Source of the DNA: a virus
Reading direction: 5' to 3' (one strand)
DNA: 64,000 nt
IMG/VR virus record: IMGVR_UViG_3300019458_000002
Coordinates: 107,714 to 171,713 of that record
The notes under the pieces are model-generated. The model did not search any database. It had not been told where the DNA came from and saw only the letters and a list, made by a program, of their open reading frames with translations. Each line of letters starts with the position of its first letter. Position 1 is the first letter of the stretch. Positions 8,384-33,652 of this stretch are shown here, one piece after another. The translations under genes were made by a program, and so were the position numbers.

Positions 8384-8944
8384 GTGAAGAATAGCAAGGC
8401 AGAGTGGGAAGCTAGAACCGCCCTAATAGAAAAAGAGGGGAAAATTGATTGCAGCCTATGTGGTGTAATTAAGCCTCTATCTGAATATCCCCAAAGTAGA
8501 ACTAACAGAAAAAATCGGCCCAGATACAGGTATTGCAAACCCTGTCATTCGGCCACCCAAAGAAGACTAAGTCTTAAAAAGAAATTTAACATCTCTGTTG
8601 AAGAGTATGATAAAATGTTTCTCCATCAAGGTGGAGTTTGTTTTATTTGTAAAAAACCTCCAAAGAATGTTAGACTTAATGTAGACCATGACCACAAGTC
8701 TGGATTAATAAGAGGATTACTTTGCCCATTCTGTAATAGGGTTGTTGGAATGTTTAGAGACGACATTATTAAGATTGACAACGCTTCTTTTTACCTTAAA
8801 AATCCGCCCGCAGTTGGGGCTCTTGGAGAAAAGAGATATGGCCTTAAGGGTAGAGTTAACAATAAAGCAAAGACAAGAGATAGGCTGAATAAGGTTAAAG
8901 ACCCGTTCGATTTGCCCCGACACCCGGAGCCCGAAGAGAAGTAA
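8384..8944 (+). CDS. HNH endonuclease, endonuclease VII family (homing type)
   Basis: The 186-residue protein has an N-terminal zinc pair (CSLCG ... CKPCH) and a C-terminal endonuclease VII-type HNH: CFICKK, NVDHDHKSG, RGLLCPFCN. His, Asn and Cys ligands are all present. The GTG start at 8384 has no Shine-Dalgarno site. The gene is visibly more AT-rich than its neighbours and sits right before the ribonucleotide reductase gene, a common place for free-standing homing nucleases. It is related to the HNH domains at 14048 and 28140. Confidence 0.85.
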   Translation: MKNSKAEWEARTALIEKEGKIDCSLCGVIKPLSEYPQSRTNRKNRPRYRYCKPCHSATQRRLSLKKKFNISVEEYDKMFLHQGGVCFICKKPPKNVRLNVDHDHKSGLIRGLLCPFCNRVVGMFRDDIIKIDNASFYLKNPPAVGALGEKRYGLKGRVNNKAKTRDRLNKVKDPFDLPRHPEPEEK

Positions 8945-14047: not shown

Positions 14048-14440
14048 ATGGATAGAGAAACTCACAATAGGCAGGCTCGCGAGTCGTACCACAGAACAAA
14101 GGGTGCCCTAAAAAGATACCACAAAAATCGAGATGAAAATCTCGGCAAAATGAAAGAATATCACCTAAAGAACAAAGAAAGGCTTAATAGGTCCAGGGTT
14201 CTTCGAAAGTTTGGTCTAAGTATAGAAGACTTTAAAAAAATTTCGGATGAACAAAAGGGGCTATGTAAGATTTGTCGTTTACCTCCGAACGGGAATAACG
14301 AATATCTTTCTGTAGACCACAATCATGCTACTGGTAAAATAAGGGGTTTGCTTTGTTCAACCTGCAATAGTGGACTTGGGTATTTTAAAGACAGTGCTAA
14401 TTACCTTAGAGCAGCTGCTGATTACCTAGACAGGTTGTAA
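14048..14440 (+). CDS. HNH endonuclease, endonuclease VII family
   Basis: 130 residues from the ATG at 14048, one base after the previous stop (TAAGATG pattern). The N-terminal half is a basic helix; the C-terminal half has CKICRLPP, SVDHNHATG, RGLLCSTCN and a final YLDRL. It is a single complete domain of the same family as those at 8384 and 28140. Probably a free-standing homing nuclease inserted after the phosphoesterase gene. Confidence 0.8.
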   Translation: MDRETHNRQARESYHRTKGALKRYHKNRDENLGKMKEYHLKNKERLNRSRVLRKFGLSIEDFKKISDEQKGLCKICRLPPNGNNEYLSVDHNHATGKIRGLLCSTCNSGLGYFKDSANYLRAAADYLDRL

Positions 14441-26964: not shown

Positions 26965-27571
26965 ACCAACTGATTCACTTGAAATGAGGACAGCCTTCAC
27001 CTTAGAAACAGGTGCAAATTTTGCTGACAGAACCATCTACCTATGGGGTGGCATCGACCACGAGACAGCCTACAAGTTCTTTGTTCCATTTCAGGCCATG
27101 GATAAGTCAGGGCAATGGATTCGAGTGATTCTAAACTCTCCTGGAGGAGACGAAGCTTCTGGGTTCGCTATCTACGAGCTAATCAAGCACTCCAACAGCC
27201 CTGTGTTAATTGACGGATATGGAACTGTGTTTAGTATGGCATCTATGATTATGCAGGCTGGCACTGTTCGCCGCATGAGCCCAGAATGTCGCTTCATGGT
27301 TCACTGTGGGTCAGTGGGATTGACTAGCGATGTTGAGACAAATACCTTCGTGGCTCTAGCCGGTGAATTAGGCTATATAAACAAGAGATATTCGGACATC
27401 ATGGGCTTGAAATCAAAGAAGCCAAAGGAAGAAGTTACGAAGCTCTGCAACAAGGAATCGTATATGTCAGCTGAAGAAGCTGTGAAATGGGGTTTCATTG
27501 ACACAGTCATTCAAACTGGAAGCGATATCGAGGTTTCAATCAAGAAGGTGAAGCCAAAGAAAGCAAAATAA
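26945..27571 (+). CDS. clpP-like: ClpP-like serine protease
   Basis: 208 residues. ClpP fold landmarks: LNSPGGDEASGFAIYELIK, nucleophile Ser97 in GTVFSMAS and His120 in RFMVHCGS. The usual third catalytic position before MSAEEAVKWGFIDTV is Glu rather than Asp (NKESYMSA), so activity may be altered. Length is close to bacterial ClpP (about 207). No Clp ATPase is encoded nearby, so it may use the host unfoldase, or it may be a capsid-maturation-type ClpP-like protease; the distance from structural genes makes this less likely. Confidence 0.82.
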   Translation: MKKQKRKPTDSLEMRTAFTLETGANFADRTIYLWGGIDHETAYKFFVPFQAMDKSGQWIRVILNSPGGDEASGFAIYELIKHSNSPVLIDGYGTVFSMASMIMQAGTVRRMSPECRFMVHCGSVGLTSDVETNTFVALAGELGYINKRYSDIMGLKSKKPKEEVTKLCNKESYMSAEEAVKWGFIDTVIQTGSDIEVSIKKVKPKKAK

Positions 27572-27573
27572 AA

Positions 27574-28140
27574 ATGAATAAATACTTACTGGGTGTCTTA
27601 GGAGCAATTGTAGTGTTTGGGCTTGGTTACGGCTCAGGTCGATACCTGACTCCTGCTCAGGTTGTAGTCACTGAGACAGTAAAGGAAGTCATTCAAGAAA
27701 AAATCGTTATTCAGAAAGAGATTGAGGTGAAGGTTGTGAAGGTTTTTATTGAAAAGAAAGCTGAAGAACGTGAAATTACCGAGACCAAGAAGCCTGATGG
27801 AACTGTAGTAATTACTACCAAAGAAAAAATCAACACCGACACAAAGATTGACGAGAGCACCGATAAGAAGGAGAAGGAAAAGACTGAAGCCGACCTTCTT
27901 GCCTCTAAAGAAGCCGCAAAGAAAACGGAAACCATTTTTTCAAAACCAAATATAAGGCTTGGGTTCCAAACTGGATACAACTTCCGAGACCTACTTGACA
28001 CAAGAACCTTTGGTAAGGGCGGCATGATATTCGGTATATCTGCAGAAAAACGACTTATAAGAAACCTACCCATATTCGTCGGCATCTGGGCTAATAACCA
28101 AGGTGCAGGAGGCGTAGGAGTAAGTTACGAAGGGTTCTAA
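27574..28140 (+). CDS. Membrane-anchored periplasmic protein with charged stalk
   Basis: 188 residues. One N-terminal membrane helix (LLGVLGAIVVFGLGYGSGRYL, about 4-24) is followed by a highly charged, repetitive stalk (about 30-120; EKIVIQKEIEVKVVK, KEKINTDTKIDESTDKKEKE), then a compact C-terminal strand-rich domain (RLGFQTGYNFRDLL ... GVGVSYEGF). N-in topology with a periplasmic stalk recalls i-spanins, but the C-terminal domain is extra. Function unknown; envelope role likely. Confidence 0.55.
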   Translation: MNKYLLGVLGAIVVFGLGYGSGRYLTPAQVVVTETVKEVIQEKIVIQKEIEVKVVKVFIEKKAEEREITETKKPDGTVVITTKEKINTDTKIDESTDKKEKEKTEADLLASKEAAKKTETIFSKPNIRLGFQTGYNFRDLLDTRTFGKGGMIFGISAEKRLIRNLPIFVGIWANNQGAGGVGVSYEGF

Positions 28141-29510
28141 TGGGATATTCAAGGGAATACTATAGAAAATACCGCGAACTTAATAGAGAAAAAATATTAG
28201 AAAATAATAGAAGATACTATAAAAAAAGAGGACCCAAGACACCCAACAGAGAAGTCGAACATCGTGCTAGTATAAAAACAAAATATGGGATTACAAAAGA
28301 CCAAAAAGACGAAATGGCAAGACACCAACGCGGTCTGTGCGCGATATGCTCTAAAAAGCCTAACAAACTTTTTATAGACCACAACCATTTAACTGGGAAG
28401 GTAAGAGGTCTGCTTTGTCGTGAGTGCAACCTTGCCTTTGGTCTATTTAAAGAAAACAAAACAGCGCTTTATTCAGCGGTTTCTTATTTGGAAAGATATC
28501 AAGAAAAGTTTGCTTCAGACAAACTCGGCCCCGATGCTCAAATGATGGTAAGAAGGGAGCTTGAGGATAAGTTAAATCTTAGCATTGGAGAGCCTCACTT
28601 TATACCCAGAATAACAAAACAAGATATGCGATACCCTCCTCCTGAAGGGAAAGAAGAGTTGGTCTCTCTGATAAAGAAGAGAACAGACAAAAAACACGTA
28701 GTTATAACCAATGGAGGAAAGCAGGCGCTCTTAGCCAGCATGTACGCCCTTAAAAAGGTGTCTGGTATGAATTGTGTTATACATGAGCCCCCTTATTGGC
28801 CAAGCTTCCCTACGCTAGCTAAAATGTCTGGGCTAAGTTTTAATTCCGATTTAAATGAGAATCCTATTAAAATAATTACTCTTCCTGGCAATCCACAGGG
28901 TCTTTTCCCTATCAAAAAAGACCTTTATCATATTTGGGATAGCGTATACGCGCAGCCTCTGTATGGATTTAAGGGTATGATTCCCAATCACATCATTCAA
29001 GTAGAGAGTATGTCAAAGGCGTTCGGGCTTTCTGGAGCGAGGTTGGGGTGGCTACTGACAGATGATGAAAAGCTTGCCGAAGCTGCCAAGAACTACATGG
29101 AATTTACAACTAGCGGAGTATGCGTTCTTTCCCAAAATCTTGCTATTGACTTTTTTGAAAATGCAAAGAATATGGACCGTAGGCTTCATAAAGCAAGAAT
29201 AATTTTGTTAAAAAATGGAGAACTCTTTAAAAAGGAAATAGCGGAATTTGTGCAAGTATATTATGGGGTTCCAAAAGACGGGACCGGAATGTTTGCGTGG
29301 TTTTTAGTAAAACCCGAATTTCAACAAATCTTCTCGGAATCTATCAAAAATGTAGATTTGTTATTGGTTTCAGGGGAATCTTGTGGTATGATGGAGAAAG
29401 GATGGTACAGAATGAGTATGGGCCATAACTTCGACTATACCAAACTTGTCCTAACAAAGCTACGAAAGGAAATTGATAGTGTCCGACACACACACGGAAC
29501 TAGAATATAA
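28140..29510 (+). CDS. Fusion of HNH endonuclease VII domain and class I/II PLP aminotransferase
   Basis: 456 residues, one frame. Residues 1-120 are a complete HNH domain: CAIC (67-70), DHNH (80-83), RGLLCRECN (90-97), ending in YLERY, just where the stand-alone HNH protein at 14048 ends. Residues about 135-450 form a full aminotransferase: GEPHF (150), NGGKQAL (191), PGNPQG (249-254), D267-SVY, the PLP lysine K293 in SMSKAFGLSGARLGW, and the C-terminal substrate Arg424 in YRMSMG. Internal ATGs at 28542/28545 lack a Shine-Dalgarno site. The whole gene is AT-rich compared with neighbours. The amino-acid substrate is unknown. Confidence 0.85.
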   Translation: MGYSREYYRKYRELNREKILENNRRYYKKRGPKTPNREVEHRASIKTKYGITKDQKDEMARHQRGLCAICSKKPNKLFIDHNHLTGKVRGLLCRECNLAFGLFKENKTALYSAVSYLERYQEKFASDKLGPDAQMMVRRELEDKLNLSIGEPHFIPRITKQDMRYPPPEGKEELVSLIKKRTDKKHVVITNGGKQALLASMYALKKVSGMNCVIHEPPYWPSFPTLAKMSGLSFNSDLNENPIKIITLPGNPQGLFPIKKDLYHIWDSVYAQPLYGFKGMIPNHIIQVESMSKAFGLSGARLGWLLTDDEKLAEAAKNYMEFTTSGVCVLSQNLAIDFFENAKNMDRRLHKARIILLKNGELFKKEIAEFVQVYYGVPKDGTGMFAWFLVKPEFQQIFSESIKNVDLLLVSGESCGMMEKGWYRMSMGHNFDYTKLVLTKLRKEIDSVRHTHGTRI

Positions 29511-30090
29511 GTTACCTGCAGCCAAGGTGAGCATAAATGATTTTGTTACTTGGCTGACAGCGCAAGGCCCTGACACATACGTACACCTTATGTCTCCAGA
29601 CCTGTACTATGAACAGGGTGAGTCAACGGTTCGTCATCGTTGGGGCTGTGACGTAGGTGAGGTTAAGGGAGCAGGAGAGTTAACGGTAAAACGCCGGAAA
29701 GACAAGAAGTCGACTACCTCGCGAGTTGAAGTTGACCTCTCTTTTGCAGAAAAGGTTACCAGAGAGGACGTTACAACGTTCCTGGAGCTAACTGGATGGA
29801 AGAGAGCTTTCACCGTCATTAAAGACTGTCACATCTTCAATTTCTCGGCAACTGGCAAGCCGAAGGTTAGCATTGTCATCTATGACTGCTGGCTTGCGGG
29901 GACAGACAAGCCTGTTCCCAAGCGATTCATTGAAATTGAAGCAGCTAAGGGCAGCAATGAAACCTTTAAAAGAGACAAGGAAATTATTGATGAATGGTAT
30001 TCAAAAATTTCCTCTCGCTTCGACGTAGAGAAGCCTATTAACAAATCTCTTTACGAGATTTTCTCTGGTAAAAGCTATAGGCTAGTGTGA
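29479..30090 (+). CDS. CYTH-domain (triphosphate tunnel) protein
   Basis: 203 residues from the GTG at 29479 (AAGGA 8 bases upstream; a TTG at 29473 is also open). It has the CYTH signature ELEYK near the N-terminus, VRHRWG, ELTVKRRKDKK, RVEVDLSF, and FIEIEAAKG: alternating charged strands that line a tunnel binding triphosphates. CYTH enzymes cleave thiamine triphosphate, inorganic triphosphate or RNA 5' triphosphates, or make cAMP. Its place beside RNA ligase and Thg1 genes favours an RNA 5'-end role, by inference. Confidence 0.65.
   Translation: MSDTHTELEYKLPAAKVSINDFVTWLTAQGPDTYVHLMSPDLYYEQGESTVRHRWGCDVGEVKGAGELTVKRRKDKKSTTSRVEVDLSFAEKVTREDVTTFLELTGWKRAFTVIKDCHIFNFSATGKPKVSIVIYDCWLAGTDKPVPKRFIEIEAAKGSNETFKRDKEIIDEWYSKISSRFDVEKPINKSLYEIFSGKSYRLV
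30074..30080 (+). promoter_or_regulatory. GCTAT box before an SD-less GTG
   Basis: GCTATAG 13 bases before the GTG at 30087, with TAGTGTG spanning the start, just as at 8384 and 31173. No Shine-Dalgarno sequence and no clear -35 box. It lies within the end of the CYTH gene. Confidence 0.35.
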
Positions 30091-30590
30091 ACTCCACAAT
30101 CCTCAAGAAAGAGGCTCTATTCTGGTTAAGGTACAAGAAGCGATACGAGCTTGTTTGTACGGAAGTACAAGTAGGGCACGGTATAGCTGATGTTTATGCT
30201 ATTGGTCCCGATTGGAAGGCCCCAACAAGCTCAATCGAGATTGAAACAAAGATAAGTGCATCAGACCTAAAGAGGGATTTTGAGGATAAGTCTGCAAAGC
30301 ATTTTGCAATCAAGAGTGAAACTAGACTTTCTCCCAACTACTTCTACTTCATGGTGCCAACAGACTTAACTGAACTAGCGCTGGAGTTGGTTGCTCAGCA
30401 CAATCCCAAATATGGAGTCCTCTGCTTAGGGGAGTATGACTTTCAGCCGCTGACGGTTGTTAAAAAGGCGTCGAAGTTACATAAAGAGCATCCCACTAAC
30501 CACATTATTGGAAATGCGGTGCTTCGCATGGGCAGCGAAATCTGTCTCCTGCACAAGAAAGTATTAAAAAATGAAAAGAACTCAAATTGA
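30087..30590 (+). CDS. Putative PD-(D/E)XK nuclease-like protein
   Basis: 167 residues. The N-terminal part carries a typical restriction-endonuclease-fold core: YELVCTEVQVGHGIADVYAI, then SSIEIETKISASDLKRDFED (about 48-67), giving D-x(n)-E-x-K as in MmcB-like and resolvase-like nucleases; the ADVYAI...EIETK spacing fits. It sits inside the RNA-repair-like cassette, so a DNA or RNA cleavage role is possible. It starts at a GTG with no Shine-Dalgarno and overlaps the CYTH stop. Confidence 0.5.
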   Translation: MNSTILKKEALFWLRYKKRYELVCTEVQVGHGIADVYAIGPDWKAPTSSIEIETKISASDLKRDFEDKSAKHFAIKSETRLSPNYFYFMVPTDLTELALELVAQHNPKYGVLCLGEYDFQPLTVVKKASKLHKEHPTNHIIGNAVLRMGSEICLLHKKVLKNEKNSN

Positions 30591-30867
30591 GGTCAGAATA
30601 GACCCTGAAGAAAACAAGAGTAAGTGGAAGGTTCGCATTGAGGACCAAGACACACTACCAGGCACCCCTGAATTTTCGGTTCGTCAAGTTTTATTCTTAG
30701 AAGAATTAGCTGTCAATAACCATTTATTGCTAACTTGTGGTCCAGTGCGGTATCAGAGGCTGGCAATCTTTCATGATGGAGTCAAGTGGATTGCGGAAGC
30801 AGAAGCCATTGGACCTTCATCAAATGAAAAAGTTAAATCGACCGCGTCGGGAAGAAGCCAAGGGTAA
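30571..30867 (+). CDS. Hypothetical protein
   Basis: 98 residues, overlapping genes on both sides by 20 and 44 bases. Strand-rich pattern (QIEVRIDPEENKSKWKVRIE; RLAIFHDGVKWIAEAEAIG). No family recognised. The extensive overlap with the next gene is unusual even for this compact genome. Confidence 0.5.
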   Translation: MKRTQIEVRIDPEENKSKWKVRIEDQDTLPGTPEFSVRQVLFLEELAVNNHLLLTCGPVRYQRLAIFHDGVKWIAEAEAIGPSSNEKVKSTASGRSQG

Positions 30868-31832: not shown

Positions 31833-32876
31833 ATGGCTTCGTTTGGTGTATACGTAGTTAAAATACCTGGATTTGGGCAACACCCAAATGCCGACAAGCT
31901 CTCTATTACTCAGGTTGAGGGATGCCCCGTTATTTTTCAAACTGAAGAGTTTAGGGGCCTAAATAAGGCCGTCTATATTCCTATAGACGCCATGGTGCCT
32001 CTGGACATGCAGGCTTTTGCTTTCTTGCGCAATGACAAGTATAAGCCCGGTAAGAAGCACCGTATGAAGGCAAAGAAACTTCGGGGAATCTTCAGCATGG
32101 GCATGCTAGTGCCTATCTCGGCTCTTGAAAAAGAAATTCAGGGACACATTGACTGGGAACCTGGCACAGATATTTCTCAGCATCTTGGCATCACAAAGTA
32201 TGAGGAACCTCTAGACCCAGTTTCATTTGGAAAGTCTCAGCAGGAATCTGACCCCGGAGTAATTCCACACTATGACATGGAGAGTTACCGAAAGTACAAG
32301 CACGTTCTTGCAGACAGCGAGGAAATTGTAGTCACGGAAAAACTCCATGGTTGCAATTCAAGATACTTTTGGCATGTGAAAGATGGCGCTGAGCCTCGCT
32401 TCTATGCCGGTTCTCATGGTCAATTCAAGAAATTTCATGAGACCAATTTGTGGTGGAAAACCGCAATCCAGTATGACTTAGAGAATAAACTGAAGCCATT
32501 CCCAAACCTTGCACTGTATGGCGAAGTTGTAGGAACCCAGGATTTGCGATATGGGGCAAAGCAGGGCGAAACGTTCTTCGCTGCCTTTGACCTTTACAAC
32601 ATTGAAAAAGGCAAGTTCGAAGATTACGAGAACTTCCTGGAATTCTGCAAGAAAATCGATGTGCCGGTTGTACCCGTTATTTATCGGGGTCCGCATCTTT
32701 CAGAGTATATGGAAACCCTTTCTAAGGGAGACACAACGTTACTTGCTGGACAAATTCGTGAGGGAATAGTGATAAGGCCAATTAAGGAGCGCTGGAACTA
32801 CGAGACCGGCAGAACCCTACTCAAGTTCGTATCTGAGGACTACCATCTTCGCAAGGGTGGGAGTGAGTATAAGTAA
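31833..32876 (+). CDS. RNA ligase, Rnl5/DRB0094-like
   Basis: 347 residues. The N-terminal OB-like domain has HPNADKLSITQVEG (about 17-30), also seen in tRNA-binding domains and in the Deinococcus-type (DRB0094) RNA ligases. The nucleotidyltransferase core has motif I EKLHG with AMP-accepting Lys170, LYGEVVG (motif III), FAAFDLY (IIIa), EGIVIRP (motif IV) and LLKFVSEDY (motif V). Length matches the family (about 340). Rnl5-type ligases seal 3'-OH/5'-phosphate nicks in RNA. Its neighbours suggest repair of cleaved tRNA or other RNA after host defence. Confidence 0.85.
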   Translation: MASFGVYVVKIPGFGQHPNADKLSITQVEGCPVIFQTEEFRGLNKAVYIPIDAMVPLDMQAFAFLRNDKYKPGKKHRMKAKKLRGIFSMGMLVPISALEKEIQGHIDWEPGTDISQHLGITKYEEPLDPVSFGKSQQESDPGVIPHYDMESYRKYKHVLADSEEIVVTEKLHGCNSRYFWHVKDGAEPRFYAGSHGQFKKFHETNLWWKTAIQYDLENKLKPFPNLALYGEVVGTQDLRYGAKQGETFFAAFDLYNIEKGKFEDYENFLEFCKKIDVPVVPVIYRGPHLSEYMETLSKGDTTLLAGQIREGIVIRPIKERWNYETGRTLLKFVSEDYHLRKGGSEYK

Positions 32877-33652
32877 TGAAAGACTCATTAGGTGACCGTA
32901 TGAAGGATTATGAAGGCGTACCTCGTGTACGTCTTATCAAGAAGATGCCAGTCATTGCTCGCATTGACGGAAAGGCCTTCCACACGCTAACACGAAAGAT
33001 GGCGAAGCCTTACGATAAGAACTTCCAGTATACAATGCTAGATACTGCGCTCCACCTCTGTACAGAGATTCAGGGCACAAAGATGGCATATGTCCAGAGC
33101 GATGAAATCAGCCTTCTGATTATGGACAATAACACCCGCGATACCCAGGCCTGGTTTGACAATGAACTACAGAAGATGTGCTCTGTGGCAGCCAGCATGG
33201 CTGCTTCTCAGTTTATGTGGAGCTTTGTATCAAACTTTGGGCTAGGGGCCGTCACAAACGTGCGCCCCGCCTTTGATGCACGTTTTTGGAACCTACCTGA
33301 GAACGAAGTTGTGAATTATTTCGTTTGGCGTCAACAGGATGCCGTACGAAACTCCATCCAAAGCCTAGCTCAAGCCAACTTCCCTCATAAAGAACTCCAT
33401 GGCCTGTCATGCGACCAACTGCAGGAAAAGCTTTTTCAGGAAAAAAGCATCAACTGGAATGACTGCTTGACCATGGATAAGCGTGGGAGTTGTATTGTCA
33501 AGTCCATAAAGACTATTTACACAGATAAAGGAACTGCAGACCGTAGAATCTGGGTAACTGACCTTGAAATCCCTACATTTACTCAGGACCGCAAATACAT
33601 TGCCACAAGGCTCTTGCCAGAAGAATCTGTTTCTGGTAAAAAGGAACAATGA
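32876..33652 (+). CDS. thg1-like: Thg1-like 3'-5' polymerase (tRNA-His guanylyltransferase family)
   Basis: 258 residues. The N-terminal catalytic part has RIDGKAFHTLTR (Asp31) and QSDEISLLI (Asp76, Glu77), the metal-binding carboxylates at almost the same positions as in human THG1 (29, 76, 77), then SVAASMAASQF. The family adds G(-1) to tRNA-His or, as Thg1-like proteins, rebuilds tRNA 5' ends by 3'-5' addition using a template. The start overlaps the RNA ligase stop by 1 base, so ligase and Thg1 are probably made together. Few phages are known to carry it. Confidence 0.88.
   Translation: MKDSLGDRMKDYEGVPRVRLIKKMPVIARIDGKAFHTLTRKMAKPYDKNFQYTMLDTALHLCTEIQGTKMAYVQSDEISLLIMDNNTRDTQAWFDNELQKMCSVAASMAASQFMWSFVSNFGLGAVTNVRPAFDARFWNLPENEVVNYFVWRQQDAVRNSIQSLAQANFPHKELHGLSCDQLQEKLFQEKSINWNDCLTMDKRGSCIVKSIKTIYTDKGTADRRIWVTDLEIPTFTQDRKYIATRLLPEESVSGKKEQ

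What the first reader, a model, noticed from the sequence alone, without database searches (positions are those of the whole stretch)
28140..29510. In-frame fusion of a homing-type HNH nuclease to a complete PLP aminotransferase
Seen: one uninterrupted frame encodes a full endonuclease VII-type HNH domain (1-120) and a complete fold-type I aminotransferase with catalytic Lys293 and substrate Arg424. The HNH ends in YLERY, exactly where the free-standing relative at 14048 ends (YLDRL, stop), so the fusion looks like lost termination after insertion of a homing gene. Known: I recall no such domain pair. Inference: either a mobile nuclease hitching on an aminotransferase, or a new enzyme tied to DNA, for example in modified-base chemistry.
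Basis: partly seen in the sequence, partly recalled or inferred. Interest (0 to 1): 0.75.

Follow-up and report, generated by a model that had tools for sequence, protein, structure and literature searches.

The report
Homing nuclease fused onto phage aminotransferase
In one uncultivated large phage a selfish DNA-cutting gene has inserted exactly at the start of a resident metabolic-enzyme gene so that the two now read as one protein, whereas related phages carry the enzyme alone at the same place.

Summary
One open frame (28140-29510, 456 aa) carries a complete Endonuclease VII-type HNH domain (about residues 1-120, all DHHRN residues present) and a catalytically intact fold-type I aminotransferase (about 130-456; Lys293, Arg424).

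The origin is largely resolved by the "empty site". Four relatives in the lineage of Myxococcus phage Mx1 (L029-L032) carry a stand-alone aminotransferase, 37-40% identical, at the same locus. In L029 and L031 it starts on the stop codon of the upstream gene, exactly where the HNH starts in the window. All other members found of this compact enzyme family are unfused. Most other EndoVII-type HNH genes in this lineage lie free at gene junctions and stop within about ten residues of the same end motif.

Best explanation: a free-standing DHHRN-family homing gene inserted at the enzyme's start, took over its translation start and fused to it in frame. The enzyme belongs to an apparently undescribed, compact alliinase/tryptophan-aminotransferase-like phage family, often paired with a CYTH gene. 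No thymidine-hypermodification toolkit was found. It is a single instance from a metagenome, so a sequence error at the junction is not excluded.

The parts
28140..29510 (+). Fused ORF, 456 aa: EndoVII-type HNH plus compact alliinase-like aminotransferase
28140..28499 (+). EndoVII/DHHRN-type HNH half (residues 1-120): CxxC at 67-70, D80 H81 H83 R89 N97, ends YLERY
   Evidence: Pfam Endonuclease_7; alignment of 8 HNHs; AlphaFold model, best PDB matches T4 EndoVII and Hpy99I
28500..28529 (+). Linker QEKFASDKLG (residues 121-130): usual short HNH tail running into the aminotransferase N terminus; no start codon at the position of the relatives' start
28530..29507 (+). Aminotransferase half (residues 131-456): N251, D267, Y270, K293, R301, R424; departs from the family at G193 (A elsewhere), G250 (N) and Q253 (D or N)
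   Evidence: model best matches TAA1, alliinase, GntC
28129..28142 (+). GAAGGG ribosome-binding-like site in the upstream gene and TAATG stop/start overlap: the initiation position used by the stand-alone aminotransferase in relatives
28542..28547 (+). Possible internal start (Met135/Met136), weak ribosome-binding site
27574..28140 (+). Upstream conserved gene (membrane-anchored, coiled-coil-like; function unverified), left boundary of the variable locus
   Evidence: homologs in Mx1 and L030 by BLAST to the window; L029 and L031 copies match that of L030
29479..30090 (+). CYTH-family protein (ELEYK), start overlaps the aminotransferase end; conserved partner in L029-L032 and L051
   Evidence: PF01928 in the L031 homolog; profile match to PDB 2een and class IV adenylyl cyclases; alignment; L051
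30087..30590 (+). Conserved flanking gene, right boundary of the variable locus
   Evidence: 40% identical in Mx1, 39% in L030
14048..14440 (+). Free-standing EndoVII-type HNH directly after a metallophosphatase gene; positional counterpart in G004
   Evidence: absent in Mx1
8384..8944 (+). Free-standing EndoVII-type HNH directly before a ribonucleotide-reductase-like gene
   Evidence: absent in Mx1

Best explanation
A free-standing homing endonuclease gene of the EndoVII (DHHRN) family inserted at the 5' end of a resident stand-alone aminotransferase gene. It took over the enzyme's initiation site, which overlaps the stop codon of the upstream gene, and, having no stop codon of its own, reads in frame into the complete aminotransferase. 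Shown: relatives with the same gene order have the enzyme alone; both halves keep their catalytic residues; the enzyme's own start codon is gone. Inferred: the HNH spreads by cutting the unfilled junction in co-infecting relatives, and the enzyme is made mainly as the C-terminal part of the fusion because its start was displaced, so that the fusion keeps the insertion from silencing the enzyme. The enzyme is inferred to be an ordinary amino-acid transaminase (alliinase/TAA1-like fold); its substrate is unknown.
For: Stand-alone enzyme between orthologs of the flanking genes in L029-L032 (37-40% identity). L029/L031 start TTG on the upstream TGA; the window HNH starts ATG on the upstream TAA. 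Homology to stand-alone N termini begins near residues 129-131. HNH and enzyme absent from Mx1. Other EndoVII HNHs of the lineage are free-standing and most stop within about ten residues of the YL motif, HNH1 with its longer tail excepted. Ribosome-binding energy -4.6 at 28140, -1.7 at 28542. EndoVII-motif homing endonucleases are established experimentally (F-CphI, PMC6083498), and T4 mobE has the same UAAUG overlap with its upstream gene (PMC2988022). No intron RNA found.
Against: Single instance; no second genome with the same fusion. No near-identical HNH-less allele (closest enzyme 40% identical), so the insertion is inferred across a deep divergence. Cleavage and homing not shown. An internal start at Met135 would give a product as long at its N terminus as L037/L043/L044, so separate production is possible. 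L030 has about 270 extra bases between the upstream gene and the enzyme.
Confidence: 0.82

Rival explanations
1. Two separate genes, HNH and aminotransferase, with a sequencing or assembly error that removed the stop codon or shifted the frame at the junction.
For: Metagenome-derived single record; one base change would be enough; free-standing HNHs are the rule in the lineage.
Against: The enzyme's own start codon is also missing and no good ribosome-binding site lies at the junction, so a simple stop loss would still leave the enzyme poorly started; both flanks are syntenic, against a chimeric join.
Confidence: 0.12
2. A selected bifunctional enzyme: the aminotransferase is tied to DNA on purpose, for example in nucleotide or base modification, or the enzyme's dimer shapes the nuclease.
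For: Both active sites intact; the neighbouring CYTH gene may act on triphosphates; in two distant phages the family sits beside DNA polymerase A.
Against: No relative is fused; no dUMP-hydroxymethylase, HMUDK or radical SAM genes found in G000, G007, G009.
Confidence: 0.05
3. The HNH belongs to a self-splicing intron or an intein, and the mature enzyme lacks it.
For: EndoVII-type HNHs also occur in or with group I introns (PMC6083498).
Against: No intron family found in 27000-30600; HNH coding runs to within about 10 codons of the enzyme, leaving no room for an intron core; the relatives' enzyme starts at the junction, so there is no upstream exon.
Confidence: 0.01

Closest known systems
F-CphI / DHHRN (EndoVII-motif) homing endonucleases of phages (PMC6083498)
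   Same: EndoVII catalytic motif D-H-H-R-N, zinc cysteines; homing genes lying next to conserved phage genes
   Different: F-CphI is free-standing and linked to a psbA intron; here the HNH reads in frame into an unrelated metabolic enzyme
T4 mob/seg free-standing homing genes, especially mobE (PMC2988022)
   Same: Optional gene at a gene junction, start overlapping the upstream stop (UAAUG)
   Different: Different HNH subfamily; not fused to the downstream gene
Odn chimeric nuclease of PLE (PMC8263062)
   Same: A homing-type nuclease joined to another module (from my own knowledge; only the start of its abstract was seen here)
   Different: There the partner is a DNA-binding domain giving new targeting; here a PLP enzyme
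L-tryptophan aminotransferase TAA1 / alliinase (PDB 3bwo, 1lk9), Pfam Alliinase_C
   Same: Best sequence-profile and fold matches of the aminotransferase family
   Different: Phage members are compact (327-357 aa), about 20% identical, substrate unknown; the window copy has GNPQG in place of the family's NNPDG
Myxococcus phage Mx1 (OR576727)
   Same: Nearest named phage, same gene order around the locus
   Different: Has neither HNH nor aminotransferase nor a recognisable CYTH gene there

Membership tests
EndoVII-motif (DHHRN) endonuclease | Conserved D, H, H, R, N of the motif and zinc CxxC pairs | tested here: met
   D80 H81 H83 R89 N97 and C67 C70 C96 invariant in 8 HNHs; C93 in 7 of 8
EndoVII-motif (DHHRN) endonuclease | EndoVII-like fold | tested here: met
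   Model mean pLDDT 80.8; top PDB hits T4 EndoVII and Hpy99I, but TM only about 0.36
Free-standing homing endonuclease gene | Optional gene inserted between two genes adjacent in relatives | tested here: met
   L029, L031: upstream gene directly followed by the enzyme
Free-standing homing endonuclease gene | Separate reading frame | tested here: not met
   Continuous frame with the enzyme
Free-standing homing endonuclease gene | Cuts the unfilled allele and is inherited by double-strand-break repair | not testable with these tools
   Needs crosses and cleavage assays
Fold-type I class I/II aminotransferase, alliinase/TAA1-like | PLP lysine, Asp/Tyr/Asn pocket, phosphate Arg, substrate Arg | tested here: met
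   K293, D267, Y270, N251, R301, R424 invariant in 15 rows
Fold-type I class I/II aminotransferase, alliinase/TAA1-like | Transaminase activity | not testable with these tools
   Needs an enzyme assay
Phage thymidine hypermodification pathway | dUMP hydroxymethylase, hmdU kinase or radical SAM partner genes | tested here: not met
   None in G000, G007, G009; records may be incomplete
Group I intron-encoded HNH | Intron RNA core flanking the ORF | tested here: not met
   No Rfam intron at E up to 1 in 27000-30600

The most novel reading that the evidence does not exclude
The fusion is a stabilised two-headed protein: the aminotransferase dimer holds two HNH domains and gives the nuclease its geometry or target, and the nuclease in turn keeps the enzyme gene from being lost, so that a metabolic gene has become part of a mobile element.
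Probability: 0.08. Interest if true: 0.8.

Novelty: new variant of a known kind. Interest (0 to 1): 0.5.

Why it matters
It shows, with empty-site relatives, how a homing gene can insert at a start codon without silencing its neighbour: by becoming its N terminus. It gives a testable route by which selfish nucleases acquire partner domains. It also brings to light a compact alliinase-like aminotransferase family in large uncultivated phages, often paired with a CYTH gene, that the curated phage families searched here (PHROGs) do not name.

Tried and rejected
Single-sequence scans of IMG/VR found nothing useful: L005 was a chance 8-residue match in a wrong frame with a stop. Scans with neighbouring proteins alone found nothing; a two-row RecA-like alignment with Mx1 found the lineage. 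Ordinary full-length phage aminotransferases (L010-L013) are only 22-23% identical and stand alone. A 15-row alignment was too diverse for the genome scan; a 5-row one found only L051, a 164.9 kb contig filed under an Elusimicrobia genome that looks like a phage contig. An apparent HNH in a 372-aa open frame (L054) is most likely a free-standing gene read too far upstream. Modified-base chemistry and intron origin were tested and not supported.

Full report
1. The observation. The frame 28140-29510 is open over 456 codons. Pfam finds Endonuclease_7 at residues 45-118 (E=3e-21) and aminotransferase class I/II plus Alliinase_C over the rest. The record is a 171,713-base virus record; the window is its last 64 kb.

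2. Which phage. The RecA-like and DnaE proteins are 46% and 48% identical to those of Myxococcus phage Mx1, the nearest relative in the phage collection. Mx1 has the same gene order, GroEL to peptide deformylase, over this region. It has no HNH and no aminotransferase. A scan with a two-row RecA-like alignment gave four further close relatives. Two of them, G003 and G004, carry a distant stand-alone aminotransferase beside GroEL.

3. The empty site. An alignment of the three aminotransferases found 18 IMG/VR loci. All carry the enzyme alone. L029, L030, L031 and L032 have it between orthologs of the window's flanking genes: helicase, Clp protease and the 27574 gene upstream (as far as each contig or locus shows them), and the CYTH gene and small conserved genes downstream. 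In L029 and L031 the enzyme begins with TTG overlapping the upstream TGA; in the window the HNH begins with ATG overlapping the upstream TAA. L015, the closest by RecA (57%), has small ORFs in this place instead, as has Mx1, so aminotransferase plus CYTH behaves as an optional cassette. A maximum-likelihood tree puts the window copy with L029-L032 and L051, support 81/97.

4. The junction. Stand-alone N termini (MSAADMQLVRD..., MNDLQMARG...) align with window residues from about 129-131 on. Free-standing EndoVII-type HNHs of the lineage mostly end within about ten residues after YL (YLDRL, YLRRNK, YLIAESQR, YLNGHIEIKK); HNH1 with its long tail is the exception. The window's HNH runs YLERY-QEKFASDKLG into the enzyme. 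Nothing of either domain is missing; only the HNH stop and the enzyme start are. The start at 28140 has a GAAGGG site (-4.6 kcal/mol; median of 21 accepted starts -3.5), Met135 has -1.7, and internal methionines have a median of -2.2. An internal start is therefore unlikely to be strong but is not excluded, and its product would be as long at the N terminus as L037, L043 and L044.

5. The nuclease. The DHHRN residues are invariant among eight HNHs from this phage and relatives; the model resembles T4 EndoVII and Hpy99I. Fang et al. (PMC6083498) showed that F-CphI of cyanophage S-PM2 uses this motif and is a homing endonuclease. The same family holds resolvases and restriction enzymes, so the motif alone does not prove homing. 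Position does the work here: the three HNHs in the window lie tightly against neighbouring genes, none is in Mx1, and the one at 14048 has a positional counterpart in G004. T4 mobE has the same UAAUG arrangement (PMC2988022).

6. The enzyme. The family is compact (327-357 aa). Profile search of solved structures gives Arabidopsis Trp aminotransferase (E=4e-33) and alliinase; Foldseek agrees. PHROGs has only a weak, unnamed match, and searches of the phage collection found only distant matches in unannotated records. The window copy departs from the family at three otherwise near-fixed positions (A193G, N250G, D253Q), which could be changed specificity or relaxed selection. The CYTH neighbour overlaps its 3' end. 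Function: most likely an amino-acid transaminase acting in the infected cell; substrate unknown. Genes for thymidine hypermodification were not found in this record or in G007 and G009.

7. What is shown and what is inferred. Shown: gene order, absence of fusion in relatives, intact residues, loss of the enzyme start. Inferred: direction of change (insertion rather than loss of the HNH from many lineages, favoured because all others lack an HNH at the locus), homing activity, expression as one chain. Main weakness: one metagenomic record, no near-identical allele, no reads.

8. Verdict. A real, unusual but explicable arrangement: a new variant of the known free-standing homing gene, fused in frame to a member of an apparently undescribed phage aminotransferase family.

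Noticed in passing
L029-L046 (loci), L051: A compact alliinase/TAA1-like aminotransferase family in large uncultivated phages, in two main genomic contexts: before a CYTH gene, or after GroEL and a zinc-ribbon gene.
   Followed up: partly
29479-30090: CYTH-family protein overlapping the aminotransferase end and conserved with it in six phages; a homolog lies one or two genes downstream of the enzyme in L034 and L035, beyond a DNA polymerase A gene.
   Followed up: partly
8384-8944: EndoVII-type HNH with an unusual C-terminal tail of about 50 residues ending directly before a ribonucleotide-reductase-like gene; the tail may be a remnant of a displaced gene end.
   Followed up: no
G000:C1:21377-21709 (L004 1330-1839): Fourth EndoVII-type HNH, directly before a phosphopantetheine-adenylyltransferase-like gene; again at a gene junction.
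   Followed up: partly
28716-28718, 28887-28898 (residues 193, 250-253 of the fused protein): The fused copy has GNPQG where nearly all stand-alone members have NNPDG, and G193 where all others have A: possible changed specificity or relaxed selection after fusion.
   Followed up: partly
31833-33652: RNA-ligase-like gene followed by a tRNA-His guanylyltransferase (Thg1) gene, with GroEL and peptide deformylase elsewhere: translation and RNA-repair genes in one phage.
   Followed up: no
L051 (JAGWUP010000007.1, 164,949 b): Contig filed under an Elusimicrobia genome carries the Mx1-like aminotransferase, CYTH and peptide deformylase genes; probably a phage contig, hinting at a host.
   Followed up: partly
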